A stretch of DNA of 64,000 nt. It comes from Diplonema papillatum. Its lineage: Eukaryota > Euglenozoa > Diplonemea > Diplonemida > Diplonemidae. The notes under the pieces are model-generated. The model saw only the letters and a program-made list of their open reading frames with translations. It had not been told where the DNA came from and searched no databases. Shown here one piece after another: positions 2,798-64,000 of this stretch. Position numbers and translations under genes: made by a program. The stretch is from positions 1 to 64,000 of the forward strand of contig JAPJBO010000816.1 of the NCBI GenBank assembly GCA_030068145.1. Direction: 5' to 3'. Position 1 is the stretch's first letter. Every line of letters starts with the position of its first letter.

Positions 2798-2944
2798 GTA
2801 TGCTTTTCTTTTTTTTAGAAACATTTCTCCTTTCCTCCTTTACTTTGATCATAGGTGTCACGGCAAGTTCTGGCAGCCGCTGCTTAGCAAAGTGCATGTT
2901 AATCCGTGTGGTTCATGTACTTAAAAGAACTCAATGCTTAACAA

Positions 2945-3592
2945 CTGCCGAGAAGCTCGACCACCCCTTTGCGCGGATTGCCCCGGCATGGGCGTGGGAG
3001 CGGAACAAGGCCTGGGGACTACCGACGTTTTATGCGTTGGTAGCGTGGCTATCAGACATGGAGTGGACCGAGAACGGGCAGGCGTCAATGCTAGAGCTTG
3101 CCATCGACTTTGAACTCTTTTCAGGCCTCAGCATACCGCTGCACGAGAATGCACCGAAGGGGGTGAGGGAGCGAGGAAACGTCCTGCGCTGCATGATCAG
3201 CGCGTTGGACAAGCTGGCGACACAGCAAGGGCTGGGGAGTTGCGAGAGAGGCGAGAGAGTATGCCCGACGACGTCGCTGTCGTTCATGGGCATCTCGGGG
3301 ATATCGGGGGTGCGGCCCAGGCCCCGCTTTCGCGAGGCACACACGGGGACGATCCTCGAAGAGCAGGTGAAGGGAAGCGATGTAGGGACGCAGTGCCCGA
3401 CGTACCCGGACTGGACGGCCGAGAGAGCGGCGAGGTGGGCCCTGCCTGTCCCACCACAGCTGCACCCCGACCCCGTGCATATGCCGGGTGTCGGTGTAGA
3501 GAAAGCACTCGTCACCTGCGCGACCCACCACCCTCGCGCCACAAGTACTCGACCTTGACGACGCAATGACAGGTGACGACGTCATAAAGTAA
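2945..3592 (+). pseudogene. LINE ORF2 C-terminal fragment, internally deleted
   Basis: Encodes the region after the CCHC finger (KLDHPFARIAPAWAWERNK onward), nearly identical to 43543-44117 in unit U4. At about 3530 it jumps to the last codons of ORF2, so roughly 660 bp of the Cys/His cluster and Lys-rich tail are absent. Its stop is followed by the standard LINE tail. High identity to U4 suggests recent insertion. It is not a functional protein by itself. Confidence 0.85.
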
Positions 3593-3662
3593 CCTTAAGC
3601 GGCGACACAGTGCGTGCTAATCCATGTGGTTCATGTACTTAAAAGAACTCAATGCTTAACAA

Positions 3663-6062
3663 AGGCGGCTGCCCTGGCGGAAGGCCTCCGCCATGCGCCG
3701 TTCCGGTACGAAAAGCGGGTCCGGATTGTGCAGTCGAATGTGCTACCGGCGGCGCTGTCAGGCTGCTCTTTCGCGCCGGTATCGAAGGTGGCGATGAAAC
3801 GGCTGACGACGTCGGTGATGGGACTGATCTGGGGTGGATCCAACCCGAAGCGCGCGAGGGAGATGGTCCTAAACTTTCAGGAGAAGGGCCACCTGACGGA
3901 TCCCGGTACATGCCTAGCATATAGGGTGACGACAGCGTTTTACGCGGCGTGCGAGAGGTTGCCACGACTGCTGCCTCTGATGGAGAGCATCCGGGGAAGA
4001 TACGCCGAGGGGGACCTACCCCTGGGGCCAGTTGGACTGGCGATGAGGAGCATGGAGGAGTGTGGACACGTATGGGGACCCGGGCCCCTGTCTCGCACGC
4101 TGAGGAATGGAGCAACATATGACCCGTTAACCTCGGCACCTTCGAAGAGGGGACATGAAGTTAGGGCGGACTTGAGGGCGAAGACGTGGTCCCGACTGGT
4201 GGCGAGGCGGCCGGGATTTGAGGGCATACAGAGAGCCGACCTGGAGCGGACGAACTCCTTCTGGAGGATGCGTGAATGTCCCGCGCACACCGCGAGGCTT
4301 ATACGTGTAGCGTTGGCGGGGGGGGTGAACACGGCTGAGTACACGTCGCGGATGAGGCAGGCCGGAGCTGAGCCGCAGGCGCCCAGCTGCAAGCACTGTG
4401 GAAGCGGCGACACCGAGGACGAGAAACACGTATTCTGGGACTGCGGAGCGTACTCGCACATACGGCGACGAGAGGCACATGCCGAGCTGATGGCAGCCAA
4501 CCGGGCCGACTGGCCCAGATGCACGCTGGAACACGGTGTGGTAGTACCCGAGAATGCCCAATTCTCGAGGCGGCTCCAGGAGATGATGGCTGAAATCCTT
4601 GCGGAACGGGCTGGGCTCGAAGCACGTGGCTGGGTGGCCAGGAACCCCACGACCCCCTGGTCGAGAGCGAATGCGATGCCTGCCGAGAAATTTGACCACC
4701 CCTTCGCGCGGATTGCCCCGGCATGGACGTGGGAGCGGAACAAGACCTGGGGACTACCGACGTTTTATGCGTTGGTAGCGTGGCTGTCGGACATGCAATG
4801 GACCGAGAACGGGCAGGCGTCAATGCTGGAGCTTGCGATCGACTTTGAACTCTTCTCGGGCCTCAGCATGCCGCTGCACGGGAATGCGCCGAAGGGGTGA
4901 GAGAACGGGGAAACGTCCTGCGCTGCATGATGAGCGCGTTGGACAAGCTGGCGGCACAGCAAGGGCTGGGAAGCTGCATGAGAGGAGAGAGGGTGTGCCC
5001 GACGACGTCGCTGTCGTTCATGGGCATCACGGGGATATCGGGTATACGGCCCAGGCCACGCTTTCGCGAGGCACACACGGGGACGATACTTGAGGAACAA
5101 GTGAAAGGAAGCGATGTAGGGACGCAGTGCCCGACGTACCCTGACTGGACGATCGGGAGAGCGGCGAGGTGGGCCCTGCCTGCCCCACCACAACTGCACC
5201 CAGACCCCGTGCATATGCCGGGTGTCGGTATAGAGAAGGCACTCGTCACGTGCGCGACCCATCACAAAGGGAAGTGTGAGGCGTGCAGAGCACTCGTCCG
5301 AAGGGACGTTCCCACGGTAGAGATGTGCTGCCGGCACCATCACCACGCGAACGATGGGCAGCCGATCGCGGTGTGCACAGAGCACAGCACGACGAAGTGC
5401 GGCGAGTGCAAGACGGCGGCGGCGTGTTGCCGCAGCGGGCATCATGCCTGCCGCACGCATGGCAGAGGAACCTGCCAAGAGTGCAAAAGGCTCCCTACGC
5501 TGACGCAGAGGCGACCGGCGGCATGTTGCAGCCGCGGCCACCACCAGTCCAACAAGCCGAACGTCCAGTCAACCCCCGGACGCAACAAGAAGAAGAGGCC
5601 CTCCTCACCCACCCAGGTGGGTGTACAGCGGGAAACGCCAGTAGGAAAGCGAGCGGCGCGAGCGCCGCTCGCGGCAACGAAAAAGGAGACGGCGACGACC
5701 GGACGGGCGACCAAGAGGCCGCCACCAACGCCAGGAACCAGCGAACGACCAGCGCTGAAGAAGAGGGTGCTCGGCACCCCGAAGGAAGGCCCGATCGCCG
5801 GCCGCAAGCGGAAGAAGACGAAGGCGACCACACCCGACTCAGGGGTGCATCGAAGGAAGAAGAAGGTACCGAGGGCAAGCAGCTCTCAGAAACGACCGGG
5901 GACCACGGGCACACCAATGCCCTCGAAAGTGAAAAACGGGCACACGTGCCCGCCCTCGTACTCGCCGACTCAGTCTCTGGAATCGCAAGAAAGCCAAACC
6001 CCGCTAGCTCCACAAATGCTCGACCTTGACGACGCAATGGCAGGTGACGACGTCATCCGATA
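3663..6062 (+). pseudogene. LINE ORF2 fragment: late RT, CCHC finger, Cys/His cluster, Lys-rich tail
   Basis: Begins inside the RT thumb region (KAAALAEGLRHAPFRYEKRV), collinear with 42519 onward in U4. It contains a CCHC finger of the form CX2CX8HX4C (CKHC...H...C, near 4390-4440), then a Cys/His cluster with repeated CxxC, CC and HHH motifs (about 5255-5540) that is more complete than in U4. It closes with a Lys/Pro/Arg-rich tail ending DLDDAMAGDDVIR. The frame changes once near 4897, so this copy cannot make one continuous product. A 5'-truncated copy. Confidence 0.85.
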
Positions 6063-6076
6063 ACCTGACTTTCAAG

Positions 6077-6174
6077 GCAGTGCATGCTAATCCATGTGGT
6101 TCATGTACTTAAAAGAACTCAATGCTTAACAAAACTTGACGTGGGCGGCTTTGGATTTACATCTGAATGACACC
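6077..6174 (+). other. LINE 3' tail and right structured end of unit U1
   Basis: The tail reads GTGCATGCTAATCC...CTTAAAAGAACTC and ends AATGCTTAAC, the sequence after which new copies enter. It is followed by GACGTGGGCGGC, a weak stem-loop (TTTGGAT / ATCTGAA) and TGACACC. The same order follows the last tail in U2, U3 and U4 with different stem sequences. Confidence 0.7.
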
Positions 6175-6238
6175 TCAACGCAAAAAAAGTAGTCGACAAC
6201 TAACAAGTAGAAGAATAAAACAAAACTACGCAATTCTT

Positions 6239-7175
6239 TTTCGAGACATTGCAACGTGTTCCAAAAATGTAAGCCTGAGCAATGAGCGAACCAACACCAA
6301 ACTGAAGATCATGTCACTGTCACAGTTTACATGTCCGTGCTTCTCATGGAGATCCCTATTGGTAAAAAGAAGAAGAACAACCTGAAGAGAGGGCCCAAAC
6401 TCGGCCTGCTCAAAGAAAAAAGTGTGGATGCGTCAATGCAACAGTTTTTTGAAAGGATAGCGAAAGAGCGAAGGTACATTTCTTTTGAAAGTATGCCAAT
6501 ACTGCAGGGAATAGTTGACTAGACCTCTTGAGTTTGTGCTAACCACGAATTGGGGAGTCGGGAGAACCTACAAAGCCAAAAGCAGGACCGACCCCCCCGT
6601 TCGTGAGAAAAAGCGAAGAATAAACACTTACCACACACAACGCTAATAAAAGCACCTTCTTTTTCCATCTATCTTTGTCAAGAGCTGCAACTCAACTATT
6701 CTTACATAAGCGCCAGCTTGAAAGGAAATGCTCGACGATGCTGCCCGACAAAGAACAGTAAGGGATCCAAGTGCTGTAGCTACCGAACCGCGTGTTGAAC
6801 GGACGTGAGGTCATGCGGGTCTACCCCTACACGACAAATCACACAACTGGTCAAAGTCCTGAGTGAGAAAGCAACACACGGTGGTGTAAGCGAAGAACAA
6901 ATAAAATTGTGTTGTATTGTATTTGCCCCTTATCTCTATATGTCCTCCCTTCCATCCGGAGTCGAAGCAACAACGTCGAGTATTTTCGAGACATTGCAAT
7001 GTGTTCCAAAAATGTAAGCCTGAGCAATGAGCGAACCAAGACCAAACTGAAGATCATGTCACTAGCACAGTTAACATGTCCGCTTCACATGGAGATCCTT
7101 AAGTGCATCCCAAAAATGTGGATGCGTCAACGCAACATTTTTGAAAGGATAGCGAAAGAGCGAAGGCATATCTTT
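6239..7175 (+). mobile_element. SINE-like chain D-B-D
   Basis: Three short elements abut. Family D (6239-6495 and 6986-7175) has the landmarks GAGACATTGCAA, GTAAGCCTGAGCAATGAGCG, ACATGGAGATCC and GAAAGGATAGCGAAAGAG. Family B (6704-6985) starts ACATAAGCGCCAGCTTG and ends GTCGAGTATTTT. The second D starts directly at the T-rich end of B. A third D copy is at 22291-22565. No open frame is shared among copies, so these look like non-coding retroposons. Confidence 0.65.
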
Positions 7176-7285
7176 TTGATTGTTGCACCATCGGTGCAAC
7201 AATCATCTTTGACAGAGGGTCACCACCCAAGAAGGCACCGGAAGACGCGGTGAACGCATCCCGCCCTGGAGAAATATGTGTGTAA

Positions 7286-7537
7286 CACCGGAAACCACGC
7301 TGCAAGGACTGTACAATGAAGCGTTTGCCGGCGGAAACCTGTTGCCGGTTCAAACAGCACCACCGTGAGGGGGACGGCCTGCGACCACGAATGCTCTTCT
7401 GCCCTGCCCACAGATTGGGACGCTGCGGTGATTGCACAGCGGGCGGCCTGGAGATCGTGCATTGCTGCCAAAGGCATCACCCACAGAAAAACACAGACCC
7501 CCACGCACAGCCTGGGGGAGCATCTGCAGTAACGTGA
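7286..7537 (+). pseudogene. Cys/His cluster fragment of a second, diverged LINE lineage
   Basis: An open frame of 83 codons reads CKDC...CC...HH...DG...CPAHRLGRCGDC...CCQRHH. The spacing of CxxC, CC, HH, DG, CxxH and CGxC follows the Cys/His cluster of the main LINE (CEAC...CC...HHHH...DG...CTEHSTTKCGEC), but the residues between are mostly different. It is therefore a related but distinct family, truncated on both sides. The region downstream ends in a (TC)n tract at about 7709-7728, resembling 60420-60486, which may be the 3' end of this lineage. Confidence 0.6.
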
Positions 7538-7734
7538 AACCGGAAGAAGCGTGGACGTCTCTCGTACAGGAAGGCACCACGGTAAAACGGGTCGGGCCAC
7601 GGCTCGCTCCGCGCCCACGGCGCAACGACTTGCGCCCGCCGTAGTAGTACGGGATAGTAGTGGGGCGACCGGATACTCCTCGGAGAGATGGTCCCTGCAC
7701 TCTAACTCGTCTCTCTCTCTCTCTCTCTTTTTTT

Positions 7735-7953
7735 GTATAAGCATCTGCTTTGTAGGAAATACTTGAGGAGACTGCCCCTTAACACAAAATCTCGAAGGAG
7801 GTAAATGTGCTGTACCCCACACGAGGTACAGGTAAATCTGGGTTTAGTGGCGGGCGTAAGCGTTCAACAAAAAAAGACCCACTTTGTAGTTGTATTGTTT
7901 TCTCCCCCTCTAGCCTCCGTCGAAATGAGCACAAGGCAGTCCTCGAGTATTTC
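7735..7953 (+). mobile_element. SINE-like element A (copy 1)
   Basis: Starts GTATAAGCATCTGCTTTGTAG after a T-run, contains GGAGGTAAATGTGCTGTA, GGCGGGCGTAAGCGTTCAA and CCCACTTTGTAGTTGTATTG, and ends CTCGAGTATTT. About 215 bp and non-coding. Other copies: 9474, 11146, 14662/14793, 20990, 23694, 29937, 46031 (partial) and a tail at 25780. The first 42 bases align with family B without gaps, so A and B are diverged subfamilies. Confidence 0.75.
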
Positions 7954-8155
7954 TTTAGCCACGTGCAATGTGTGAAGAAACCGAACCGCCCAAGTAGGAC
8001 CTTCTGATCATGATTATTTGTCAATATGCCACCTGAAACCACGTCCAAAATTTGGGCTCAGGGTAGTGCGGTCAACGAAAACTCTTGTTTCCCTTTCTAC
8101 TTTCTCCTACTCTCGCGGTGTACGGTTTTTTTGTACAAGCACACGCGCCTCGTCT

Positions 8156-8205
8156 TTTTCAAGCACTGGCTGAAGAACCTCGCCGATGTGCAGATGACCT
8201 TCGTG
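8156..8205 (+). repeat. Shard of kinase exon 2 inside intron 1
   Basis: The segment TTCAAGCACTGGCTGAAGAA onward matches exon 2 at about 8981-9025 (same words with CGG for TGG, then GAACCTCGCCG and GTGCAGATGA). It lies about 480 bp before the exon and beside LINE unit U2. Only about 45 bp is shared, so it is not an alternative exon of useful length. Confidence 0.7.
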
Positions 8206-8227
8206 GTACCTGCTTTTTACTGCACTC

Positions 8228-8339
8228 AATGCTTAGCAAAACATCGTGCTAATCCCTGTGGTTCACGTCCTCAAAACGAACTCCATTCGCTTAACAATAC
8301 TTGACACAGGCGGCTTTAGATCTGCGCCTAAATGACACC
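8228..8339 (+). mobile_element. LINE unit U2 (old, tails and right end only)
   Basis: Contains a partial LINE tail (ACTCAATGCTTAGC), a second diverged tail (GTGCTAATCCCTGTGGTTC ... CGCTTAAC), then GGCGGC, a short hairpin and TGACACC at 8333-8339. No coding body is present. The left GGTGTCA end is not clearly recognisable; GGTACC at 8215 may be its remnant. Divergence from the other tails suggests the oldest unit here. Confidence 0.55.
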
Positions 8340-8644
8340 TCAACCACAATACATTGTCGACAACAAGCAAAATATAAGAGTGAATCAAAATCACGTATTT
8401 TTTTTGCAGAATTTGCACGTCTCAAATCTTCAATGCACAACCCGACTCCTAGCTTCAGTTGTCAACCGGAAGACTCTGGAGCACCGGACTACTTAAACCT
8501 CATTAAGTTTACTTTAATTCAGTCTCAGAAGACCCACCGCAACCCACCCGAATTCTCCTGTTGTAGGCTCGGGTGGTGTGCTCAGTCCTGCCATGCGCTT
8601 TGCTCCAGTTCCTTCCGTGTACTAAAGTAATAAACACTGCGCAG

Positions 8645-9457: not shown

Positions 9458-9473
9458 GTTCTGTTTTCTTTTT

Positions 9474-9677
9474 GTATAGGCACCCGCTTTGTAGGAAATG
9501 CTTGAGGAGACTGCCAATTGCGATAGATCAAAGGAGGTAAATGTGCTGTAGCCCACACGAAAAACAGGTAAATCTGGGTTCAGTGGCGGGCGTTAGCGTT
9601 CAACAAAAAAGACCCACTTTGTAGTTGTATTGTTTTCTCCCCTCTAGCCTCCTTCGAAATGAGCGCAAGGCAGTATT
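9474..9677 (+). mobile_element. SINE-like element A (copy 2), 16 bp after the exon 2 donor
   Basis: Same landmarks as the copy at 7735. It starts GTATAGGCACCCGCTTTGTAG only 16 bases after the kinase exon 2 splice donor, so nearly the whole 5' part of the intron is this element. Confidence 0.75.
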
Positions 9678-12318: not shown

Positions 12319-12443
12319 CCTGCTCCGGCCCAAAGCTCAACCCTTTCTCAAAGGGAGCCGAGGGCCAGAACAGGAACTTTGACGCGAAAAAAATTCGTTC
12401 GGGATCGACGGTAACACAAATGCGAGTCGGTGAGGGCCTGAAA

Positions 12444-16024: not shown

Positions 16025-16427
16025 GGTGCCACGGGATGTTTGGCAGCCGCAGTGCATGCTAATCCATGTCGTTCATGTACTTAAAAGAACTCAATGCTAA
16101 ACAAGAAGAAGAAGGTACCGAGGGCAAGCAGCTCTCCGAAACGACCGGGAACCACGGGCACACCAATGCCCTCGAAAGTGGACAACAGGCACTCCTGCCC
16201 GCCCTCGTACTCGCCGACTCAGTCTTTGGGATCGCAAGAAAGCCAAATCCCGCTAGCGCCACAAATGCTCGACCTTGACGACGCAATGGCAGGTGACGAC
16301 GTCATCCGATAACCTGGCTATCGAGGCAGTGCATGTTAATCCGTGTGGTTCATGTACTTAAAAGAACTCAATGCAAAACAAACATAACATGGGCGGCGCC
16401 GAAGCTTTACCAGCTTCGGCTGACACC
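16025..16427 (+). mobile_element. LINE unit U3 (small, with both ends)
   Basis: Left end GGTGCCACGGGATGTTTGGC then AGCCGC (one change from GGTGTCA), followed directly by a LINE tail (16051-16101), a 210-bp fragment of the ORF2 C-terminus (KKKVPRASS ... DDAMAGDDVIR, stop near 16313), a second tail (16327-16380), GGGCGGC, a strong hairpin (CCGAAGCT / AGCTTCGG) and TGACACC. TTGCGC lies just outside the left end and two bases outside the right end, a possible target duplication. Confidence 0.75.
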
Positions 16428-36516: not shown

Positions 36517-36550
36517 GGTGTCACGGGAAAAGCCGGCAGCCGCTGCTTAA

Positions 36551-37079
36551 CGGCCACCACCAGTCCAACGAACCGAACGTCCCGTCAACCCCCGGACGCA
36601 ACAAGAAGAAGAGGCCCTCCTCACCCACCCAGGTGGGCGTACAACGGGGAACGCCAGTAGGAAAGCGAGCGGCGCAAGCGCCGCCCGCGGCAACGAAAAA
36701 GGAGACGGCGACAACCGGACGGGCGACCAAGAGGCCGCCACCAACGCCAGGAACCAGCGAACGACCAGCGCTGAAGAAGAGGGTGCTAGGCACCCCGAAG
36801 GAAGGCCCGATCGCCGGCCGCAAGCGGAAGAAGACGAAGGCGACCACCCCCGACTCAGGGGTGCAACGAAGGAAGAAGAAGGTACCGAGGGCAAGCAGCT
36901 CTCAGAAACGACCGGGGACCACGGGCACACCAATGCCCTCGAAAGTGAAAAACGGGCACACGTGCCCGCCCTCGTACTCGCCGACTCAGTCTCTGGAATC
37001 GCAAGAAAGCCAAACCCCGCTAGCTCCACAAATGCTCGACCTTGACGACGCAATGGCAGGTGACGACGTCATCCGATAA
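36551..37079 (+). pseudogene. LINE ORF2 C-terminal Lys/Pro-rich tail
   Basis: Open throughout from KKKRPSSPTQVGVQRGTPVG to DDAMAGDDVIR and stop; nearly identical to 5550-6062 in U1. It starts right after CTTAAC of the left end. The tail is rich in Lys, Arg, Pro and Thr and was probably used for nucleic-acid binding or nuclear localisation. Confidence 0.85.
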
Positions 37080-37147
37080 CCTGACTTTCAAGGCAGTGCA
37101 TGCTAATCCATGTGGTTCATGTACTTAAAAGAACTCAATGCTTAACT

Positions 37148-38374
37148 CCTCCCCCACCAGAGAAGAACAGGGTACGCTGGATCCACCCACAATGCCCCCC
37201 CCACCCCCCCCACAGTCACGCACCCCTCCCCCCCATCAACAGTCCAACCCTACGCATTTATGTAACAGTAAAAGAACAGAAGAATCAGTCAGAGGATCTG
37301 CACGAGAGCGGCTGTTAACAGCTGGGGACGTCGAACAGAACCCTGGTCCTGGCCGCACGGAGATGAAGTTCGCGACGCTCAACGTGACCAGCATGCTGCA
37401 GTACATAGTAGCGGTTAACGCGGTGGAAGCCGACCTTCTTTGCTGCCAGGAGGTCACACTCCTTCGATGCAAACGGGCACAGGCGGAGGAATACCTGCGG
37501 AATTGGTGCTGCCACTGGGGTCCGCCACTTCCCGGGAGACTCTGTAGAAGCTCCGGTAGTCGCTCGACGACGAACGCTGCGAACGGGGGACTCTGCACTC
37601 TAGTACAGAGGCCGATACCGGCGTACGACACGTTGGCAGCGCTCTCGCACGTGGCGTTACGGTCCCCGGACCGGGTAAGCCATACTGTAGTCGCAACAGG
37701 GACCGGCAGCACCTTCGTGCACGTGTTCAATGTCTACTGCCCATCAGGAAACGGGAGGGCGGAGAACGAGGAACGTGAGGACATGCTGGAGAAGGTCCTC
37801 TTTGCGGCGGCAGACAGCCTCGGCGACGTCCCCATACTGGTGATGGGAGACCTCAACACGGAAGAAGATCGGTCCCCTGTTCTGCGGAAGGCACTTAGGA
37901 ACGGATGGTCCGACGCAGCGGAACTGCACCATGCGCGCACCGGGAACACGCCTCCGCCACCGACCTTTACCAGCGCCCGGACGTCAGGCACGAGGATCGA
38001 CCGCATACTCCTCAACCGCATAGCGGCGTGTGCATTCCGTCAATGCGTCACCACCGCGGTGAACGTACCGGGACACCGGCTCGTGACAGTGACCCTGGAT
38101 ATTGCAGCGCTGCGCCAAAGCGTGTGGCGATTTAAGGTGCCGCGGGAAATCCCGACAGAAGGGGGGGTCCAAGTGGGACCTCTCGGAAGCAGAAGCCGAC
38201 AGGGAAGCCGTACAGAGACTGGCCAACTCCGAATTCGCGGAACGGTTGGCGGCGCAGCGGGTGGAAGAGGCCTGGCTCGAGTGGTCACGGGTCAGTGAGC
38301 AGTACTTGCAGGATGCATTCGCAGTCCCTGTGGAAGAGAGAGGAAGGCAGCCTGGAACTTTGCTTGGCCCTTGA
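37148..38374 (+). pseudogene. LINE ORF2 part: Pro-rich linker, 2A peptide, APE-type endonuclease
   Basis: A Pro-rich stretch leads into SVRGSARERLLTAGDVEQNP and GPG, a canonical 2A motif, then the endonuclease: MKFATLNVTSM (catalytic Asn), LLCCQEVTL (Glu), VMGDLNTEED (Asp, Asn), GTRIDRILLN (Asp) and GHRLVTVTL (His) in the correct order. About 250 residues, the usual size. After a G-run near 38163 the coding continues in another frame (WDLSEAEADREAVQRLANSE) up to the satellite insertion. The endonuclease would nick the target for target-primed reverse transcription. Confidence 0.88.
37324..37350 (+). other. 2A ribosome-skipping motif GDVEQNPGP
   Basis: Codons for G-D-V-E-Q-N-P-G-P match the consensus D(V/I)ExNPGP exactly, preceded by a short Leu-rich stretch. 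In 2A peptides the ribosome skips the bond between the last Gly and Pro, giving two proteins. 2A sequences are known at the N-terminus of some non-LTR elements, including trypanosomatid ones. Here it would separate an upstream product (the OTU domain in unit U5) from the endonuclease-RT protein. Confidence 0.9.
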
Positions 38375-38559
38375 CCCCCGCCTACGGTGAGGTCCTTTTT
38401 GGGGGTTTTTTTTGGTGGCCTTACCAGCCTCACGACAATGGGGGGGGTCCGGGGGGCTTCGCCCCCCGGCGAACGGTACGGTACATGAGTTTGCTCGAAA
38501 TGAGCGGTCCGGGGGCCACACCACTCGGCGACCCGTTCCAGCAGGTACTTTACGGTCGA

Positions 38560-38990
38560 ATTGGGCAGGTAACGCTCGTGTAACGCTAGTTTACAGCCAT
38601 ACTTGGTATGTCACGCTCATGTAACGCTACGTTACAGTCGAATTTGACATGTCACGCTCGTGTCACGCTACTTTGGAGTCGAATTCGACATGTAACACTC
38701 GTGTCACGCTACTTTACGGTCGAATTGGGCAGGTAACGCTCGGGTAACGCTAATTTACAGTCATATTTGGTATGTCACGCTCATGTAACGCTACGTTACA
38801 GTCAAATTTGACATGTCACGCTCGTGTCACGCTACTTTACGGTCGAATTGGGCAGGTAACGCTCGGGTAACGCTAATTTACAGTCATATTTGGTATGTCA
38901 CGCTCGTGTAACGCTACGTTACAGTCAAATTTGACATGTCACGCTCGTGTCACGCTACTTTGGAGTCGAATTCGACATGTAACGCCTTGG
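38560..38990. repeat. Degenerate tandem repeat TGTCACGCTCGTGTAACGCTA
   Basis: Units of about 46-62 bp built from GGTATGTCACGCTCATGTAA, CGCTACGTTACAGTC and AATTTGACATG; the array also shows a longer period near 122 bp (38700 against 38822). Confidence 0.75.
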
Positions 38991-39239
38991 GTCGAAATAA
39001 GCGGACGCCGAACGCCACCCCCAATTATAGGTGTTCCTCCGGTGGCCCGCGCAGCGGCGATTTCTTTTTTTTTTTTGCGAGCGGGGTTTGGGGCCAGAAC
39101 CTTATGCAGCCCGTTTTTCCCTTCAGAATAGACACCAACCCCGTTTTCTCTCGCGAGTTTTAATATAGGGGGGGGTCCGGGGGGCACCGCCCCCCGGGAG
39201 ACGGTACGGTACATTGAGCCTCAGCTGCCCCTCTCCCCC

Positions 39240-40436
39240 CTGTACAATTTCCCGAGGTGGGACAATTTTCCAATGCTGGGTTTCGAGGTCGGAAAACCTA
39301 TTTGGACAATTTCCCGAGGTGGGACAATTTTCTAATGCTGGGTTTCGAGGTCGGAAAACCTATTTGGACAATTTCCCGAGGTGGGACAATTTTCCAATGC
39401 TGGGTTTCGAGGTCGGAAAACCTATTTGGACAATTTCCCGAGGTGGGACAATTTTCCAATGCTGGGTTTCGAGGTCGGAAAACCTATTTGGACAATTTCC
39501 CGAGGTGGGACAATTTTCCAATGCTGGGTTTCGAGGTCGGAAAACCTATTTGGACAATTTCCCGAGGTGGGACAATTTTCCAATGCTGGGTTTCGAGGTC
39601 GGAAAACCTATTTGGACAATTTCCCGAGGTGGGACAATTTTCCAATGCTGGGTTTCGAGGTCGGAAAACCTATTTGGACAATTTCCCGAGGTGGGACAAT
39701 TTTCTATGCTGGGTTTCGAGGTCGGAAAACCTATTTGGACAATTTCCCGAGGTGGGACAATTTTCCAATGCTGGGTTTCGAGGTCGGAAAACCTATTTGG
39801 ACAATTTCCCGAGGTGGGACAATTTTCTAATGCTGGGTTTCGAGGTCGGAAAACCTATTTGGACAATTTCCCGAGGTGGGACAATTTTCCAATGCAGGGT
39901 TTCGAGGTCGGAAAACCTATTTGGACAATTTCCCGAGGTGGGACAATTTTCTATTGCTGGGTTTCGAGGTCGGAAAACCTATTTGGACAATTTCCCGAGG
40001 TGGGACAATTTTCTAATGCTGGGTTTCGAGGTCGGAAAACCTATTTGGACAATTTCCCGAGGTGGGACAATTTTCCAATGCTGGGTTTCGAGGTCGGAAA
40101 ACCTATTTGGACAATTTCCCGAGGTGGGACAATTTTCCAATGCTGGGTTTCGAGGTCGGAAAACCTATTTGGACAATTTCCCGAGGTGGGACAATTTTCC
40201 AATGCTGGGTTTCGAGGTCGGAAAACCTATTTGGACAATTTCCCGAGGTGGGACAATTTTCTAATGCTGGGTTTCGAGGTCGGAAAACCTATTTGGACAA
40301 TTTCCCGAGGTGGGACAATTTTCCAATGCTGGGTTTCGAGGTCGGAAAACCTATTTGGACAATTTCCCGAGGTGGGACAATTTTCCAATGCTGGGTTTCG
40401 AGGTCGGAAAACCTATTTGGACAATTTCCCGAGGTG
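39240..40436. repeat. 62-bp satellite, about 19 units
   Basis: Near-identical units with GGACAATTTCCCGAGGTGGG, ACAATTTTCCAATGCTGGGT and CGAGGTCGGAAAACCTATTT. No unit carries a stop in any plus frame, so frames up to 423 codons are open; they are a by-product of the repeat. Very low divergence suggests recent amplification. Confidence 0.95.
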
Positions 40437-40985
40437 GCACAAGCGTGTTCTGGCCGAGATCACGCGTGTGCACCTCTCAAAGTGACAGAACTTTGACGTC
40501 TCCGTCCAAATTGTGGCAGCACACGTGTGTTCTTGCCGAGAACACGCTTGTGCCGCCGGGTGCGAGCTGGTCGCACAAGCGTATTCTGGCCGGTCGCAAT
40601 TTTGTTGGATGCATTTTGCCCGGCAGCTGGACGTTTTTCCATTTTAGTCAGGTGGAGGCACAAGCGTGTTCTGGCCGAGATCACGCGTGTGCACCTCTCA
40701 AAGTGACAGAACTTTGACGTCTCCGTCCAAATTGTGGCAGCACACGTGTGTTCTTGCCGAGAACACGCTTGTGCCGCCGGGTGCGAGCTGGTCGCACAAG
40801 CGTATTCTGGCCGGTCGCAATTTTGTTGGATGCAATTTGGTGCTGTAGACGCGGGAATCCCGGCAGCTGGATTTTCCATTTTAGTCAGGTGGAGGCACAA
40901 GCGTGTTCTGGCCGAGATCACGCGTGTGCACCCTCGTCAGAACTTTGACGTCTCCGTCCAAATTGTGGCAGCACACGTGTGTTCT
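40436..40985. repeat. ~221-237-bp tandem repeat, 2.4 units
   Basis: Units start at 40436, 40657 and 40894 (GGCACAAGCGTGTTCTGGCC). Each has inverted words AAGCGTGTTCTGGCCGAG and CCGAGAACACGCTTGT. Confidence 0.85.
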
Positions 40986-40988
40986 TCT

Positions 40989-43900
40989 CAGGAAGGGGTA
41001 CCGGCCGGGGGATGAAGACATTGCCGAGGAGGGTCTGTGTCACGGCGGGCACTGCGACCGACGGGTCGGGGGCAGCGAACAGCAGGCAGCTACGGCTCAG
41101 AAAGGCCATCCACCGGATGGAACGCATCTGCAGCTACCTCGCGCAACGTCGCGGGCCGGAAGCTGTTCCACATGAGGTATCCCTCTGCTGGCAGAACTGC
41201 AAGCGGCTGGCACAAGCGTGCATGGTGGGCGACCAAGGCGCAGGGGGGTTTCCGGATCATGAGAAGGCGAAACAGCTGCTCACAGCGTTGCGGGAGGAGA
41301 CGAGTAGGCTCGGGAGAGAAGGATCTGCGGCCAGGTTTACGAAGTACCGAGACAAGCTGAACGAGAGGGCGGACGCGAGCAGACGATGTCTAGCGACCGT
41401 CTGCGCCGGTCGCGCTGAGCCATCGGGAATGTTGCGCACCGGAGCGAAGATGACTGCAAATGTGGACGAGATGGACGAGGTGTTGCACACTGCGTGGGAC
41501 GCTATCCTGCGAAAGTACAAGGACCGGCCAGAGCCGGAGTACGGTCCGTTTCGGGATCGGTTCCGGAACGATCACGGGGGAGGAGCTGCGGACTCTGCTA
41601 AGGAAGAAGCGAAGAGAAGCGCGTCAGGCGTGGATGGCTGGCGCATGGCTGAACTGCGGAATGAGTTGCCGCTTCCCCTGCTGAATGCGCTAGCGGATGT
41701 CATGAACCTGGTCGAAGTGACTGGGGTTTGGCCGGCGAGCATGACGTGTCGATGGTGCCGAAGGATGAGAGCCAAAACCCGTTGCACACGAGGCCAATAA
41801 CCGTCACGTCCGCTGTGTACCGCCTATGGGCGTGCCGCAGGCTTGCGGACATAGTCCTGTGGCAGGAGAAGTGGATCGAAGAAGGACAGAAGGGCTTTCG
41901 ACCGGGTCACCGTATCGAGGACGTCCTGATGGAGATAGGGCTCGAGATGGAGGACGCCTTGCTAGATGGAGAGCCGCTCTACGGGGTGGCGCTGGACTTC
42001 CGGAAATGTTTCGACATGGTCCCGCGAGAGATAGTGCTGCGCCTGGCCGGTGACTTAGGGTTGCACAATCGGGTTCTCAAGCCGCTGAGGGCGATCTACA
42101 GACTGCTCGCGAGACGCTTCAAGCTGCCTCTAGGGGTGGGCAGGGAGTTTAGTGTGACCAATGGTATCCTTCAAGGGTGCCCTGTGTCCGTCATCCTCAT
42201 CAATGCCCTGCTGTCGGTAGTGATGAAGGCGGTCAAGAAAGAAGCGGAGGCAGACGATGCCACGCTGCTATCCAGGCTGTCGGAGGCCGCCCTGCAAAAG
42301 GGGGTGGACGTAGTAGACGAGTTCTGCACGCTCACCGGAATGGAGCTAAACCTCCAGAAAACGGTCGCGTTCTCGACGAGACGTAGGCATCAGTCGACGC
42401 TCAGACTCCGCAGCGTGGATGCGCTGCTGCGGTTTGGCAAATCTGTCACGTGCCTGGGGGTCCTAGTCTCGACGGCGAAGAATAGGACAGAAAGGTCCGA
42501 CTCGGAGAGGGTGGAGAAGGCGGCTGCCCTGGCGGAAGGCCTCCGCCATGCGCCGTTCCGGTACGAGAAGCGGGTCCGAATTGTACAGTCGAATGTGCTA
42601 CCGGCGGCGCTGTCAGGCTGCTCTTTCGCGCCGGTGTCGAAGGTGGCAATGAAACGGCTGACGACGTCGGTGATGGGACTGATCTGGGGTGGGTCCAACC
42701 CAAAGCGCGCGAGGGAGATGGTCCTAAATTTTCAGGAGAAGGGCCACCTGACGGACCCCAGTACATGCCTAGCATATAGGGTGACGACGGCGTTCTACGC
42801 GGCGTGCGAGAGGTTGCCACGACTTCTGCCTCTGATGGAGAGCATCCGGGGAAGGTACGCCGAGGGGGACCTACCCCTGGGGCCAGTTGGACTGGCGATG
42901 AGGAGCATGGAGGAGTGTGGACACGTATGGGGACCAGGGCCCCTGTCTCGCACGCTGAGGAATGGTGCAATATTTGACCCGATAGCCTCGACACCCTCGA
43001 AGAGGGGGCATGAGGTGAGGGCGGATTTGAGGGCGAAGACGTGGTCCCGTCTAGTAGCGAGGCGGCCGGGATTTGAGGGTGTGCAGAGAGCTGACCTGGA
43101 GCGGACGAACTCCTTCTGGAGGATGCGAGAATGTCCCGCGCACACCGCGAGGCTTATACGTGTAGCGTTGGCGGGAGGAGTGAACACGGCTGAGTTCACG
43201 TCGCGGATGAGGCAGGCCGGAGCTGAGCCGCAGGCGCCCAGCTGCAAGCACTGTGGAAGCGGCGATACCGAGGACGAGAAACACGTATTTTGGGACTGCG
43301 GAGCGTACTCGCACATACGGCGACGAGAGGCACATGCCGGGCTGATGGCGGCCAACCGCGCCGACTGGCCCAGATGCACGCTGGAACACGGAGTGGTAGT
43401 ACCCGAGAATGCCCACTTCTCAAGGCGGCTCCAGGAGATGATGGCTGAAATCCTAGCGGAACGGGCAGGGCTCGAAGCACGAGGCTGGGTAGCCAGGAAC
43501 CCCACGACCCCCTGGTCGAGAGCGGATGCGATGCCTGCCAAGAAGCTCGACCACCCCTTTGCGCGGATTGCCCCGGCATGGGCGTGGGAGCGGAACAAGG
43601 CCTGGGGACTACCGACGTTTTATGCGTTGGTAGCGTGGCTATCAGACATGGAGTGGACCGAGAACGGGCAGGCGTCAATGCTAGAGCTTGCGATCGACTT
43701 TGAACTCTTTTCAGGCCTCAGCATACCGCTGCACGAGAATGCACCGAAGGGGGTGAGGGAGCGAGGAAACGTCCTGCGCTGCATGATCAGCGCGTTGGAC
43801 AAGCTGGCGACACAGCAAGGGCTGGGGAGTTGCGAGAGAGGCGAGAGAGTATGCCCGACGACGTCGCTGTCGTTCATGGGCATCGCGGGGATATCGGGGG

Positions 43901-44836
43901 TGCGGCCCAGGCCCCGCTTTCGCGAGGCACACACGGGGACGATCCTCGAAGAGCAGGTGAAGGGAAGCGATGTAGGGACGCAGTGCCCGACGTACCCGGA
44001 CTGGACGGCCGAGAGAGCGGCGAGGTGGGCCCTGCCTGTCCCACCAAAGCTGCACCCCGACCCCGTGCATATGCCGGGTGTCGGAGTAGAGAAAGCACTC
44101 GTCACCTGCGCGACCCACCACAAGGGGAAGTGTGAGGCGTGCCGAGCACTCGTCCGAAGGGACGTACCCACGGTAGAGATGTGCTGTCGGCACCATCACC
44201 ACGCTGACGATGGGCAGCCGATCGCCGTGTGCGTGGAGCACAGCACGACGAAGTGCGGCGAGTGCAAGACGGCGGCGGCGTGCTGCCGCAGCGGGGCCGC
44301 CGCCGGCCCACCACCAACCCAACGAACCGAACGCCCCGGCAACCCCCGGACACAGCAAAAAGAAGAAGAGACCCCTCTCACCCACTCAGGTGGGCGTACA
44401 ACGAGAAACGCCGGCAGGAAAGCGCGCGGCGCAGGCGCCGCCCGCCGTAGCGAAGCAGAAGACGGCGACGACCGGACGGGCAGCCAAGAGGCCGCCACCA
44501 ACGCCAGGGACCGGCGAACGACCAGCGTTGAAAAAGAGGGTGCTCGGCACCCCGAAGGAGGGCCCGATCGCCGGCCGCAAGCGGAAGAAGGCGAAGGCGA
44601 CCACACCCGAGTCAGGGGTGCAACGAAGAAAGAGGAAGGCCCTTAAAGCAAACAGCTACCAGAAACGTTCGACGTCCCCAAGCACTCCAGTGCCCTCGAG
44701 AGTGAAAAACGTGCAAGCCTGTCCGCACCTGTGCCCCTCCACGCAATCTCCAGAACCGCAAGAAAGCCCAGCGCCCCTGGCGCCACAAGTACTCGACCTT
44801 GACGACGCAATGACAGGTGACGACGTCGTAAAGTAA
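40989..44836 (+). pseudogene. LINE ORF2 part: reverse transcriptase, CCHC finger, Cys/His cluster, tail
   Basis: After about 240 residues of linker come RT motifs: RPITVTSAVYRLW, QKGFRPGHRIEDVL, YGVALDFRKCFDMVP (motif A Asp), GILQGCPVSVILINALLS (motif B) and ADDATLLSRL (motif C). Only about 20 residues separate B from C, where LINE RTs usually have 35-40, and the Tyr before ADD is absent, so a piece is missing here. Then the thumb, a CCHC finger (CKHCGSGDTEDEKHVFWDC), a Cys/His cluster shorter than that in U1, and a Lys-rich tail ending DDAMTGDDVVK. The frame changes near 41090, 41745 and 44285. No RNase H domain is seen. Confidence 0.88.
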
Positions 44837-44852
44837 CCTTGAGCGGCGACAC

Positions 44853-44977
44853 AGTGCATGTTGTACTTAAAAGAACTCGTGTGCATGCTAATCCATGTGG
44901 TTCATGTACTTAAAAGAACTCAATGCTTAACGGCTTATCACGTGGGCGGCCCTGAGATTACCCCCTCAGGTGACACC
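44853..44977 (+). other. LINE tails and right structured end of unit U4
   Basis: A shortened tail (GTGCATGTTGTACTTAAAAGAACTC) is followed by a complete one ending AATGCTTAAC, then ATCACGTGGGCGGC, the hairpin CCTGAG / CTCAGG and TGACACC. Confidence 0.7.
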
Positions 44978-45059
44978 ACTTTATCTTTTGCCATACTGCA
45001 ACTCTCTTAACGAGGTTGGCAGAGAGACTCAGTATACTAAGTACGTGCGCTCGGCTAAG

Positions 45060-60453: not shown

Positions 60454-60484
<31 letters not shown>

Positions 60485-61420: not shown

Positions 61421-61479
61421 GGTGTCACGGGATAAGCCGGCAGCCGCTGCTTAACGGTGTGCAGGCTCAGGGCCAGCAG

Positions 61480-63442
61480 ATGGCGACCCTGATGGCTGCC
61501 GTCAACGGCCTGGTAGAACAGGCCCGTTCGAGTGGTGCACGGGTGAGGGACGCTCGCTCCATCTGGTTGGACGAGGAGGACGAGGAGGAGGCCGAGCGGG
61601 GGATCGATCCAGACGGAACCGACGGGGAGGTGGAGGGCTCGGAGATGCGTGGGAAGGCATCGGTGGACGAAGCACAGGACGGCGGGAAGAATAAAAAGAA
61701 AGGAAAGCGTTCGAAGGCAGAGGACACGGGCGGAAGAGGCGGAAAGGGCAAGACGAATGCAGGTGAGGACGACGACGGCAGCGGCGGCGGAAACGGCGTG
61801 GCGAAGCAAGAAGCGTCGACTGGAAGAGGGAGCAAGAAGAAGAAGAAGCACAACGGGGGCTGGACGGAGGTGTCGGGCAAGAAGGAGAGGAAGCCGACGG
61901 CCGAGCGCGCGATGGAAGAGGTCGGGCAGAGGAAGGCCGAAGAAGACGGGAAGCCAGTCGAAGGGGCGAGGAAGGCGAAAATTGAGCTGAGGCAGGAGGA
62001 TTGGGGAGTGCCAGTGGTAGAACACACCAAGCTGGCGGAAGCCACGGTGGCATTCGCGCCCATGGCGAGAAGATACGACGTGAGGGGATGCCGGAGGGCT
62101 CGGCCATGGTCACAGTGGCGGCTCTGGAGGGCAGTAGGCGGACAGACGTGGTCTGCAGGGTTGACGGCGCGGAGAAGGTGCTGCCGGCATACGTGACGAG
62201 GTCTCCGGAGGGGGATGTGGTGTACGCGCCCGCGGATGTGAAGGAAGTCGACCGCCCGCCGACGTCGACGGTGCTGATTTGCGCCGAGATGGATGCACGC
62301 TGGTGCGGAGCGGAGACGCTGGCAGCCCTGCAGGAACCGTCGGGGGGGCGGGTGCTGAAGGCGGAGTGCAGGCGGCTCGCGGAAGAGGCAGGGGTGAAGC
62401 TGGGCCCGCACAGCATGTTTAATGTGCGGCGGGTACACCGGGTGTACCAGCTGATGGTACGGGTCGAAGGAGAGCACGTCGAGAAGCTGCTGAAGGTTTC
62501 GGGCAGAAGAGGGCTCTTCCTACGCATGCCGCGGTGGAGGGAGGCCAACGAGGTGGTGTGGCTAGCTGACGCGGAGGCGTCGCTGAAGAGCGCTCTCATG
62601 TTCGCACAGAGGGAAGGCTGCCTAGGCCTTGCTCGCAGTCGCGCGCGGCTGGGGGTGAGGGTCGAAGGCGGCAAGTCCGAGCAGGTGCGGCGAAAGCTAG
62701 GCGAAGCGGCGGCGAAGCAGGGGCCGCCCGCGATGCATTACTTGGTGAGGGGAGCACAGGCGCGCGATGCCGCTTCGGATCTTGAGGCGACCATGAAGGC
62801 GGCGGGATGGACGTGTCGCCAAGTCGCGTCCTACCGGAGCAAGACGCATGGGGACACGCGCGTCGTTGCCAGCGAGGAGCCGCCCCCGCATCGACTGATA
62901 AGCGCGGGAGGAGCGCTGATGAAGGTCGACGACGAGACCGAGGAGGACAGGTCCGGACGGCGGCCGAAGTCGCAGGTGTGGGATGCAAGGGCGGAGAGGA
63001 CGCCGAAGGTCTCGTCGTACCTCGAGGCGATGCGACGGCAGGGACAGGAGAAGACGAGTACACCCGAGCAACCGAAGGGCGCGGGCGACAATAATGGCGC
63101 GGTGCAACAGCTCCGGGCGGAGAACGCGGAGCTACGCGCGAAGAACGACGCGCTGCGTGGAGACATCGCAGCACTCGGCGCTCAGATGGCCAAGCTGACC
63201 GAGATGGTCGCGACGATGAGGCCGAAGACACCCCCGGCGATGCCCGTAGACCGAACCCCGGCAAGAAGAAGGCGCCGAAGACGCCCGTCGCCACACCGAC
63301 GAAGCAGAAGACGGGACGGGCCGAGGCTCCGTCTGAAGACGTCCACATGACGCAACCGAAGCGTCCGCTGGGAACGCCGGGGAAGTCACCGTTAGCGAAG
63401 ACGAAGAAGGCGCACCAACCGGCGTCGGCGAAGCGTTCGTGA
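61480..63442 (+). pseudogene. LINE ORF1 (nucleic-acid-binding protein), frame-disrupted
   Basis: First ATG at 61480 (MATLMAAVNGLVEQARSSGA); the open frame extends upstream to the element start. Residues 1-200 are acidic then Lys-rich (KNKKKGKRSKAED). The middle, from about 62080, is a folded region with AMVTVAALEGSRRTDVVCRV and VLICAEMDARWCGAETLAAL. Near the end is a Leu-heptad coiled coil (VQQLRAENAELRAKNDALRG) and a basic tail ending AKRS with TGA at 63440-63442. The coding sense moves between frames near 62080 and 63250. The likely role is RNA binding and RNP formation, as for other LINE ORF1 proteins. Confidence 0.75.
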
Positions 63443-63457
63443 CTGACGAACGACGAG

Positions 63458-64000
63458 ATGCGTGGCGGAGGGAAGACGCTCGAAACGCTGGGGTCTAGGT
63501 TGAAGGAAGCGGCGGACGCGATGGGAGCTAGTGTGCAAGAGATTCCTGGGGACGGTGCCTGCCAGTTCGCAGCGGTCGTGGCCGGGCTGCCGGGATGGTC
63601 GGTAGGGGGGCTTCGTGCGCGTGTTGTGGACGCGATGTTGGAGGACCCGACGTTCGAGGCTCACTTCGCGCCGTCCGAAAGGTACGGCAGCTGGGAGTTC
63701 TACGTGGAGGCGATGCGGGGACCGTACGAGTACGGGGACGAGATGACGCTGACGGCAGCCGCAACGGTCACCGGGACGACAATCTGGGTACTGGACAGCA
63801 GGAGTCCGCACATCCTGCGACGGTACGCACCTCGCGCGGGCGCCACAGGGGAGCAGGCGGTAGTCACGTATGTACCGGAACACTACGACCGACTCCTACT
63901 CCCGGGCAGCGCAATGGCAGAGCTGGCGCGACGTACAGGCACGGTGGAAACTGCGGCAGTCCTACAATCAATCAAAGAATCAGCAAGACAGCGGCTGATA
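63458..64000 (+). CDS. LINE ORF2 N-terminus: OTU-type cysteine protease domain (partial)
   Basis: Starts 15 bp after the ORF1 stop in the same frame and is open to the window edge (181 codons). GDGACQFAAV holds the catalytic Asp-Gly-x-Cys of OTU deubiquitinases, followed by helices, YGDEMTLTAAATVTGTTIWV and the His motif PEHYDRLL, all in family order and at family spacing (about 150 residues). The last residues SIKESARQRLI align with SVRGSARERLL just before the 2A motif at 37312. So the protease should be released from the endonuclease-RT by ribosome skipping. OTU domains are known in a few LINE lineages; their role is not settled. Confidence 0.88.
   Translation, partial: MRGGGKTLETLGSRLKEAADAMGASVQEIPGDGACQFAAVVAGLPGWSVGGLRARVVDAMLEDPTFEAHFAPSERYGSWEFYVEAMRGPYEYGDEMTLTAAATVTGTTIWVLDSRSPHILRRYAPRAGATGEQAVVTYVPEHYDRLLLPGSAMAELARRTGTVETAAVLQSIKESARQRLI

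What the first reader, a model, noticed from the sequence alone, without database searches (positions are those of the whole stretch)
2854..64000. LINE copies sit in a cloverleaf-like inverted site: GGTGTCA-hairpin-GCCGC / GCGGC-hairpin-TGACACC
U1 (2854-6174), U3 (16025-16427) and U4 (36517-44977) have both ends. U2 shows the right end and U5 the left end. The outer 7-mers GGTGTCA and TGACACC are complementary, the inner GCCGC and GCGGC are complementary, and a hairpin sits between on each side. If the LINE is removed, the remaining sequence could fold as a four-way junction with a 7-bp outer and a 5-bp inner stem, like a tRNA cloverleaf, and with TGCTTAAC in the central loop. The LINE always enters after that loop word. 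Either this is a structured, multi-copy host RNA or DNA target, or the ends belong to a larger transposable unit that carries the LINE. I know of no described system of this exact form.
Basis: partly seen in the sequence, partly recalled or inferred. Interest (0 to 1): 0.88.

Follow-up and report, generated by a model that had tools for sequence, protein, structure and literature searches.

The report
Retroelement RNA knot hosting another retroelement
The odd inverted site is a folded RNA element near the 3' end of several families of Penelope-like jumping genes in the protist Diplonema, and a second kind of jumping gene (a LINE) inserts into one loop of it; the fold matched no family in the RNA library searched.

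Summary
The site is real; it is neither a host RNA nor part of the LINE. It is an ~80-nt element in the 3' UTR of several Penelope-like element (PLE) families of Diplonema papillatum. Uninterrupted copies abound: 205 exact U1-type sites (0 in the control), and 40 of 40 scored U4/U5-type hits at >=98%. The fold is not a cloverleaf: P1 encloses hairpins P2 and P3, with covariation in P1 and P2 and family-specific pairing in P3. GCCGC/GCGGC would be a pseudoknot from the P2 loop; it hardly varies and is untested. Three full carriers (F2, F3, F5) encode N-terminal GIY-YIG, RT and OTU or USP protease; the F2 RT folds like telomerase. A LINE with APE-type nuclease inserts after TGCTWAAC in the P2 loop: 1254 of 2501 exact tails precede TGGGCGGC by 4-20 bp. 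The word follows the host family in 99 of 100 listed rows, so it is a target-site duplication. In a sister PLE (71% identical protein) the segment with the element is replaced by sequence that does not align. PLE copies keep one strand over 100 kb and more, with the genes. Function is unproven: RT recognition is likeliest; a new self-cleaving ribozyme is not excluded.

The parts
2811..2853 (+). upstream piece of the U1-type (F2) Penelope-like element; 5' edge approximate
   Evidence: blastn of window 1401-2890 to F2 loci starts between 2803 and 2853 in different loci
2854..2888 (+). U1 left half of the RNA element: P1 GGTGTCA, P2 5' strand CAAGTTCT, core GGCAGCCGCTGCTTAGC
   Evidence: sequence
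2889..6122 (+). LINE material inserted in U1: at least three concatenated pieces, each closing with the tail ...AAAAGAACTCAA
   Evidence: tail copies at 2892-2942, 3610-3660, 6080-6130
6123..6130 (+). U1 right copy of the target word TGCTTAAC
   Evidence: rule
6131..6174 (+). U1 right half: P2 3' strand AAAACTTG, GCGGC, P3 hairpin TTTGGAT/ATCTGAA, P1 TGACACC
6175..6239 (+). 3' remainder of the U1-type PLE after the RNA element
   Evidence: blastn to most F2 loci ends at about 6239
8296..8339 (+). U2 right half of a diverged F2 element
16025..16050 (+). U3 left half (F3 type): GGTGCCACGGGATGTTTGGCAGCCGC
16051..16371 (+). LINE insert in U3: a short tail copy, then a 5'-truncated 3' end of the LINE; word TGCAAAAC at 16372-16379
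   Evidence: tail copies at 16052-16102 and 16329-16374
16380..16427 (+). U3 right half: P2 3' strand, GCGGC, P3 GCCGAAGC/GCTTCGGC, P1 TGACACC
36517..36551 (+). U4 left half (F1 type)
36552..44923 (+). LINE material inserted in U4 (a truncated copy, then a longer copy with tandem-repeat arrays inside)
37138..38298 (+). LINE reading frame with a 2A-like sequence (GDVEQNPGP, NPGP at 37339) and an APE-type endonuclease domain
   Evidence: Pfam Exo_endo_phos 8.9e-12; translation; '2A-like' is recalled knowledge
41728..44646 (+). LINE reading frame with reverse transcriptase
   Evidence: Pfam RVT_1 4.6e-16; 98% identity over 87% of the query to a protein named for Diplonema papillatum, P0013
44924..44931 (+). 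U4 right copy of the target word TGCTTAAC
   Evidence: rule
44932..44977 (+). U4 right half (F1 type): GGCTTATC, GCGGC, P3 CCTGAG/CTCAGG, P1 TGACACC
44978..45008 (+). 3' end of the F1-type PLE shared with genomic copies
   Evidence: blastn to L011 and L025
61295..61455 (+). 5'-truncated F1-type PLE 3' UTR ending in the U5 left half (61421-61455)
   Evidence: blastn to L011: 61295-61457 at 100%
61456..64000 (+). insert at the U5 site, running off the window; weak OTU match at 63458+; whether it is the same LINE as in U4 was not tested
   Evidence: OTU 20.3 bits, below the 23.3 cut-off

Best explanation
The inverted site is a conserved cis-acting RNA element of about 80 nt in the 3' UTR of several PLE families of Diplonema papillatum (in the one complete copy with terminal repeats, inside those repeats). 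Fold: P1 (7 bp) closes a three-way junction with P2 (6-8 bp) and P3; the P2 loop carries GCCGC, which would pair as a pseudoknot with GCGGC in the P2-P3 linker. Shown: the anatomy, the carriers, empty and filled sites, covariation, the LINE's site preference and a target-derived word at both ends. Inferred: (a) the pseudoknot; (b) that the element works as RNA, most likely as the handle by which the PLE RT recognises its own template and starts cDNA some tens of nt downstream; (c) that the LINE's APE-type nuclease cuts the DNA of the loop word TGCTWAAC, held constant by selection on the PLE's RNA, which gives the LINE many dispensable landing sites.
For: Empty sites: 40 of 40 scored hits (of 1927 candidates) at >=98%; 205 exact, 0 in control. 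F1 copies are 5'-truncated with a common 3' end. The element is the longest alignable stretch in 6 of 6 pairs of 3' UTR pieces from F1, F2, F3, F5. Covariation on 6 chosen sequences: 96.9% of cells paired against 31-52% when slid, 5 of 16 pairs changed on both sides, 0 of 500 shuffles as high on four of five measures; own-family P3 arms pair and foreign ones hardly do; P2 likewise in F1 and F2. Carriers: GIY-YIG above cut-off in L117, L118, L119, L120, OTU or UCH in each; L117 RT model: 15 best PDB hits all telomerase; L117 has 247-bp identical terminal direct repeats, each with the element. LINE: 1254 of 2501 exact tails followed by TGGGCGGC within 4-20 bp, 0 in both controls; word TTAAC with F1/F2 and TAAAC with F3/F5 in 99 of the 100 listed rows. 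For RT recognition: present in OTU- and USP-type carriers at a like distance from the stop codon (read), and replaced as a block between conserved flanks in a sister family.
Against: The pseudoknot helix is almost invariant (4 of 5 pairs never vary, one only breaks), and a competing hairpin GCAG-CCG-CTGC in the same loop is in the minimum free-energy folds of F1 and F3. The F2 minimum free-energy fold does not show P2, and the F3 fold does not show P1. P2 arms of F3 pair better with an F5 arm than with their own, and one of two F5 arms does not prefer its own. The further-pair-types measure does not exceed its shuffles (458 of 500). In L118 and L121, related PLEs, no such element was found by pattern or by eye, so not every RT of the group needs it. 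1247 of 2501 exact LINE tails are not followed by the exact right-half word; some seen are followed by another LINE copy, but this was not counted genome-wide. No function was tested.
Confidence: 0.8

Rival explanations
1. The element is a new self-cleaving ribozyme that does in these PLEs what the hammerhead does in other PLEs: process transcripts at the terminal repeats.
For: PLE hammerheads lie in the pLTRs (PMC11167929 parts 1-2; PMC7761336 passages), as does this element in L117; junction plus proposed pseudoknot with 38 of 84 alignment columns invariant, many in unpaired stretches; genes are likely co-transcribed in groups (PMC10161547 abstract), so an element would gain from RNA processing.
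Against: No Rfam ribozyme family matches. 5' alignment edges of 30 F2 copies show no pile-up at P1: 3 of 30 lie within 3 nt of its first base. The complete copy L117 starts about 101 nt upstream of it.
Confidence: 0.15
2. The element acts in host RNA metabolism (splicing, RNA stability, export or polyadenylation) and is kept because PLE copies lie in the sense strand of genes and introns.
For: PLE copies run with the genes: 68 of 73 neighbours >=20 kb apart on one strand; kinase places and the nearest listed PLE agree in 22 of 24 cases; U1 and U2 appear to lie in one intron of a kinase gene.
Against: The same bias would follow from how or where PLEs insert, without any role of the element; related families in which it was not found exist (L118, L121).
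Confidence: 0.2
3. A multi-copy host small RNA gene (cloverleaf-like) that the LINE targets, as first read.
For: Stems and loop conserved, multi-copy.
Against: The copies examined sit in 5'-truncated PLEs with shared neighbouring sequence; no tRNA in the window, no Rfam match; pairing fits P2 across the loop, not a left hairpin.
Confidence: 0.02
4. A DNA-level inverted target: the LINE nuclease recognises the inverted DNA, and conservation is due to recurrent homing, not to RNA.
For: Insertion is at one word with a target-site duplication.
Against: P2 and P3 differ in sequence between families while pairing is kept, and lie outside the word; copies without any LINE keep the pairing.
Confidence: 0.05

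Closest known systems
Penelope-like elements with N-terminal GIY-YIG (Chlamys/Naiad type; names and features recalled; DOI 10.1093/molbev/msab225 is not held)
   Same: Telomerase-like RT (tested in L117), GIY-YIG before the RT (4 ORFs), terminal direct repeats (L117), tandem units (L118), 5'-truncated copies (F1).
   Different: C-terminal OTU or USP protease; in OTU types also a C2H2-like finger (by eye, no Pfam match); a conserved RNA element other than a hammerhead. Whether such extensions are already described was not checked in a held paper.
Penelope/Poseidon elements with pLTR hammerhead ribozymes (PMC11167929, parts 1-2 of 4 read; PMC7761336 and PMC3846280, passages)
   Same: pLTRs; a conserved structured RNA in them.
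   Different: GIY-YIG is C-terminal there; the RNA is a hammerhead; here a three-way junction with proposed pseudoknot and no Rfam match.
Tx1L of Xenopus, an APE-type LINE that inserts into the transposon Tx1D (recalled; only the reference Christensen et al. 2000 was seen, in the reference list of PMC8869645)
   Same: APE-type LINE with a fixed insertion site inside another transposable element.
   Different: Here the host is a retroelement and the site is the loop of a conserved RNA structure present in several host families.
Target-specific LINEs of structured RNA genes (R2, U2-targeting Utopia: titles and abstract starts seen; SLACS/NeSL recalled)
   Same: Multi-copy RNA-coding target, fixed position.
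   Different: Target is a mobile element's own RNA element, not a host RNA gene.

Membership tests
Penelope-like element (carrier) | telomerase-like reverse transcriptase | tested here: met
   one carrier only: AlphaFold model of L117 residues 640-1240 (13-row alignment, mean pLDDT 72.9): the 15 best of 397 PDB matches are telomerase, E 4e-9 to 1e-5, TMq 0.34-0.45
Penelope-like element (carrier) | GIY-YIG endonuclease | tested here: met
   above the Pfam cut-off, N-terminal, in 4 of 4 full or near-full ORFs (L117 F2, L119 F5, L120 F3, L118); no full F1 ORF was seen
Penelope-like element (carrier) | pLTR direct repeats / tandem units | tested here: met
   L117: 247-bp repeats at 100%; L118: 5726-bp tandem spacing; in L119 and L120 no self-repeat was found in the region fetched
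Penelope-like element (carrier) | hammerhead ribozyme in pLTR (common, not universal) | tested here: not met
   no hammerhead match in L117-L124 at E<=1; L121/L118 hold a core-like string without a recognisable stem I (by eye)
Chlamys/Naiad clade | GIY-YIG N-terminal to RT (recalled) | tested here: met
Chlamys/Naiad clade | place in the PLE tree | not tested
   no reference sequences at hand; paper not held
target-specific APE-type LINE | APE endonuclease plus RT | tested here: met
   PF03372 and PF00078 in two frames of U4; both in one 1656-aa homologue, P0013
target-specific APE-type LINE | fixed target in many copies | tested here: met
   1254 of 2501 exact tails followed by TGGGCGGC within 4-20 bp; about 2 expected if unrelated, a rough estimate
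target-specific APE-type LINE | target-site duplication | tested here: met
   word at the right end follows the host family in 99 of the 100 listed rows; the odd row, TTAAC with AAAGATTA, is nearest to F3 (distance 2) and next to F2 (3)
target-specific APE-type LINE | nuclease cuts the target word | not testable with these tools
   needs an enzyme assay
self-cleaving ribozyme | match to a known ribozyme family | tested here: not met
self-cleaving ribozyme | element ends fixed at a cleavage site | tested here: inconclusive
   no pile-up at P1 in 30 F2 copies; ends further inside the element were excluded by how the copies were picked
self-cleaving ribozyme | cleavage activity | not testable with these tools
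   bench assay needed
tRNA-like cloverleaf | four-way junction with inner 5-bp stem | tested here: not met
   left arm pairs across the loop word in the hand pairing of each of the four families; ARAGORN 0 in the window, which holds only interrupted copies

The most novel reading that the evidence does not exclude
The element is a new class of self-cleaving RNA (three-way junction with a loop-linker pseudoknot) that has taken the place of the hammerhead in N-terminal-GIY-YIG PLEs and moves between PLE lineages as a cassette, while LINEs parasitise its most constrained loop.
Probability: 0.15. Interest if true: 0.92.

Novelty: new variant of a known kind. Interest (0 to 1): 0.66.

Why it matters
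How Penelope-like elements choose their RNA is poorly known. Here is an RNA fold with covariation, shared by several PLE families and replaced in a sister family, so the question becomes testable. It also shows one retroelement using another's constrained RNA module as a landing site, and it ties retroelement direction to the unidirectional gene arrays of a euglenozoan.

Tried and rejected
Cloverleaf/tRNA: rejected. Hammerhead in L118/L121: a CUGANGA...GAAA string with a GCUCU/AGAGC complement was noticed by eye, but I found no stem I or cleavage site and Rfam has no match; I had noted it as a hammerhead and withdrew that. A similar junction-pseudoknot reading for L118/L121: two sequences only, not seen in the minimum free-energy folds. 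5' ends at P1 as a sign of self-cleavage: no peak. The element outside this genome: 0 exact-pattern hits in viral contigs and genome contigs, neither a collection of eukaryotes; relatives of P0010 in viral contigs: none confirmed. Homologues of the F1 3' reading frame: none at E<=0.001. A covariance model was built but could not be run on this genome and was not used further. One search timed out; one search failed on a file name and was repeated; the count of core variants was too narrow to use.
Full report
OBSERVATION. The five sites exist at the stated places. U1, U3 and U4 show both halves, U2 the right half, U5 the left half. Deviations: U3 has GGTGCCA on the left and no loop word before its LINE; U1 has TGCTTAGC. 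No uninterrupted site was seen in the window. The window lies in a 271-Mb assembly of 2910 contigs; proteins almost identical to the window's LINE are named for Diplonema papillatum, a euglenozoan.

EMPTY SITES. A 98-nt query made by joining the flanks of U5 and U4 gave 1927 candidates in the genome; the 40 that were scored are all 98-100% identical. A pattern for the U1-type empty site gave 205 exact matches and none for the reversed control. A looser right-half pattern meant for other types gave 814 matches against 147 in its control, so some of those are chance. Regions of 301-310 nt around 40 chosen matches (20, 20) and the window gave four types: F1 (U4, U5), F2 (U1, U2), F3 (U3) and F5 (not in the window). 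Several of the 40 were interrupted, truncated or too decayed to use.

STRUCTURE. The arm between P1 and GCCGC on the left pairs with the stretch that follows the loop word: F1 GATAAGCC/GGCTTATC, F2 CAAGTTTT/AAAATTTG (one G-U), F3 GATGTTT/AAACATA (6 of 7), F5 CATGATTC/GAACATG with one bulged A. P3 differs in sequence between families and still pairs. P1 switches from GGTGTCA/TGACACC to GGTGCCA/TGGCACC. Duplex energies: P3 arms are best with their own family in each case; P2 arms are best with their own partner in F1 and F2 and in one of two F5 copies, while both F3 left arms and one F5 left arm pair better with another F3/F5 arm, these being alike. On six representatives that I chose, 96.9% of cells pair against 31-52% when slid by 1-3 columns; 5 of 16 pairs have changes on both sides; four of five measures are reached by 0 of 500 shuffles, the fifth (further pair types) by 458. 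That count covers P1, four P2 pairs and the proposed pseudoknot; P3 and the rest of P2 do not register in the alignment and were compared by hand pairing and duplex energies only. The pseudoknot GCCGC/GCGGC is nearly invariant and so untested. Minimum free-energy folds show P1, P2 and P3 for F1, P2 and P3 but not P1 for F3, and P1 and P3 but not P2 for F2; F1 and F3 show a hairpin GCAG-CCG-CTGC that competes with the pseudoknot. No Rfam family matches the window sites at E<=1, the element of L011 (one hit at E 9, outside it) or L117-L124 (only miRNA-like hits in a tandem repeat of L124).

CARRIERS. F1 copies are 5'-truncated at many points and share one 3' end about 30 nt after P1. Longer F1 copies end in a frame with an OTU-like stretch, weak by Pfam (13.5 bits, cut-off 23.3), and a C2H2-like finger seen by eye; no full F1 ORF was read. 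A search with an RT piece listed 150 scored places of 543 candidates, many with open frames of about 1450-1550 aa; F2 elements lie 1.1-1.2 kb past the RT match in at least six of them (C3, C16, C114, C233, C336, C349). Four loci were read: L117 (F2, 1547 aa), L120 (F3, 1457 aa, its element interrupted by a LINE), L119 (F5 type, 1513 aa) and L118 (1448-aa family, element not found). All four carry N-terminal GIY-YIG above the Pfam cut-off; L117 and L120 have OTU, L118 and L119 UCH/USP; RVT_1 itself is below cut-off in the two where it appears and not listed in the other two. A model of the L117 RT region matches telomerase in its 15 best PDB hits. L117 has 247-bp terminal direct repeats at 100% identity, each with the element; L118 repeats at 5726 bp; no such repeat showed in L119 and L120 as fetched. 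I call these Penelope-like elements; the paper on N-terminal GIY-YIG PLEs is not held, so clade names are recalled.

MODULE SWAP. L118 and L119 proteins are 71% identical over 1452 columns. Their 3' UTRs align at both ends (L119 about 4901-5046 and 5385-5460) but not between, and the element of L119 lies in the middle (5158-5241). L118 and L121, neither with a recognised element, align to each other across that middle. L119 shares the element instead with OTU-type families whose proteins are about 34% identical. Either a cassette was exchanged or it was lost and replaced in the L118/L121 line. Between the 3' UTR pieces of F1, F2, F3 and F5 the element is the longest aligned stretch in 6 of 6 pairs, but four short stretches outside it align as well: 18 nt (F1-F2), 34 nt (F2-F3, before the element in one and after it in the other), 46 and 26 nt (F2-F5).

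LINE. The LINE in U4 has an APE-type nuclease, an RT and a 2A-like GDVEQNPGP. Its exact tail with either loop word occurs 2501 times (0 in control); 1254 of these are followed within 4-20 bp by TGGGCGGC (0 in control). Of the first 100 listed, TAAAC goes with F3/F5 38 times and TTAAC with F1/F2 61 times; one TTAAC row (AAAGATTA) is nearest to F3. The word at the right end is therefore copied from the host site. Tails are also seen followed by another LINE copy, since each insertion restores the word (15 of 32 tails in held sequences were classed 'other', some of this kind; that sample is biased towards the element, and the script's F3 class also takes in F5 hosts). A second tail type uses the same site in L002, L090 and L109.

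STRAND. Of 200 listed PLE element places (100 each; some of the latter may be chance matches), 68 of 73 neighbours at least 20 kb apart on a contig share a strand, 42 of 47 at 100 kb or more; for 100 LINE tails 57 of 60 at 20 kb. Of 115 kinase places entered, 21 share a contig with one of 240 listed PLE places and 19 of 21 agree in strand; with the 18 places that I had left out, 22 of 24. The genome paper reports unidirectional arrays of five up to 120 genes in nearly 90% of contigs over 50 kb and transposable elements in introns; its main text has no occurrence of 'Penelope' (PMC10161547, abstract and passages found by term; supplements not seen). Why PLEs follow the genes (insertion into transcribed DNA, loss of antisense copies, for instance through RNAi, or both) is open.

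MECHANISM. I think the element is most likely the RNA handle of the PLE RT: it sits near the 3' end in each family that has it, across OTU and USP carriers, and behaves as a module. In the one PLE that I read about in vitro, initiation is internal to the RNA, the authors hypothesise a protein-binding motif within the first 172 nt of the ORF, and hammerhead mutants do not affect insertion (PMC11167929, parts 1 and 2 of 4 read). That is an analogy only: there the region is at the start of the ORF. A new ribozyme is the boldest reading not excluded; the 5' ends of 30 F2 copies give no support (3 of 30 alignment edges within 3 nt of P1, edges being shaped by subfamily divergence too).

VERDICT. 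A structured RNA element of PLEs that matched no Rfam family, and a LINE adapted to it: each part a variant of a known kind. The paper searches made were aimed at PLE hammerheads, PLE domain order, target-specific LINEs and the Diplonema genome, not at this fold, so I make no claim that it is unpublished.

Noticed in passing
G000; window U1-U5 and the two Pfam-named genes all on +: PLE and LINE copies keep one strand over hundreds of kb and agree with kinase places (22 of 24), truncated copies included; suggests sense-only insertion or retention in co-transcribed gene arrays.
   Followed up: partly
window about 2411-9505: U1 and U2 appear to lie in one ~5.8-kb intron of a protein kinase gene (glycine-loop exon from 2411; rest of the kinase domain in ORF 8573-9505).
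   Followed up: partly
window 12375-12640, 29373-29733, 48884-49153: Scattered fragments of SSU and LSU rRNA (two above the Rfam gathering score); the genome paper reports about 3600 dispersed 28S pieces.
   Followed up: no
L118 and L121 3' UTRs: In the slot of the element these families share another ~300-nt segment with CUGANGA, a GCUCU/AGAGC complement and GAAAC; hammerhead-like core without a recognisable stem I, no Rfam match.
   Followed up: partly
window about 930-1140; L118, L119, L121: By eye, a 5'-truncated 3' end of the L121-type PLE, with the shared stretch GAAGACTTGATGCTAGCATCAA.
   Followed up: no
window about 37312-37350: 2A-like GDVEQNPGP before the LINE endonuclease domain.
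   Followed up: no
F2 3' UTR (before the element) and F3 (after it; window about 16500-16540): A 34-nt identical stretch with a GCCTCTAGGC hairpin lies on opposite sides of the element in two families.
   Followed up: no
L124: A PLE ORF with a 30-bp in-frame tandem repeat (PEQSMTRPVT) before its C2H2-like finger.
   Followed up: no
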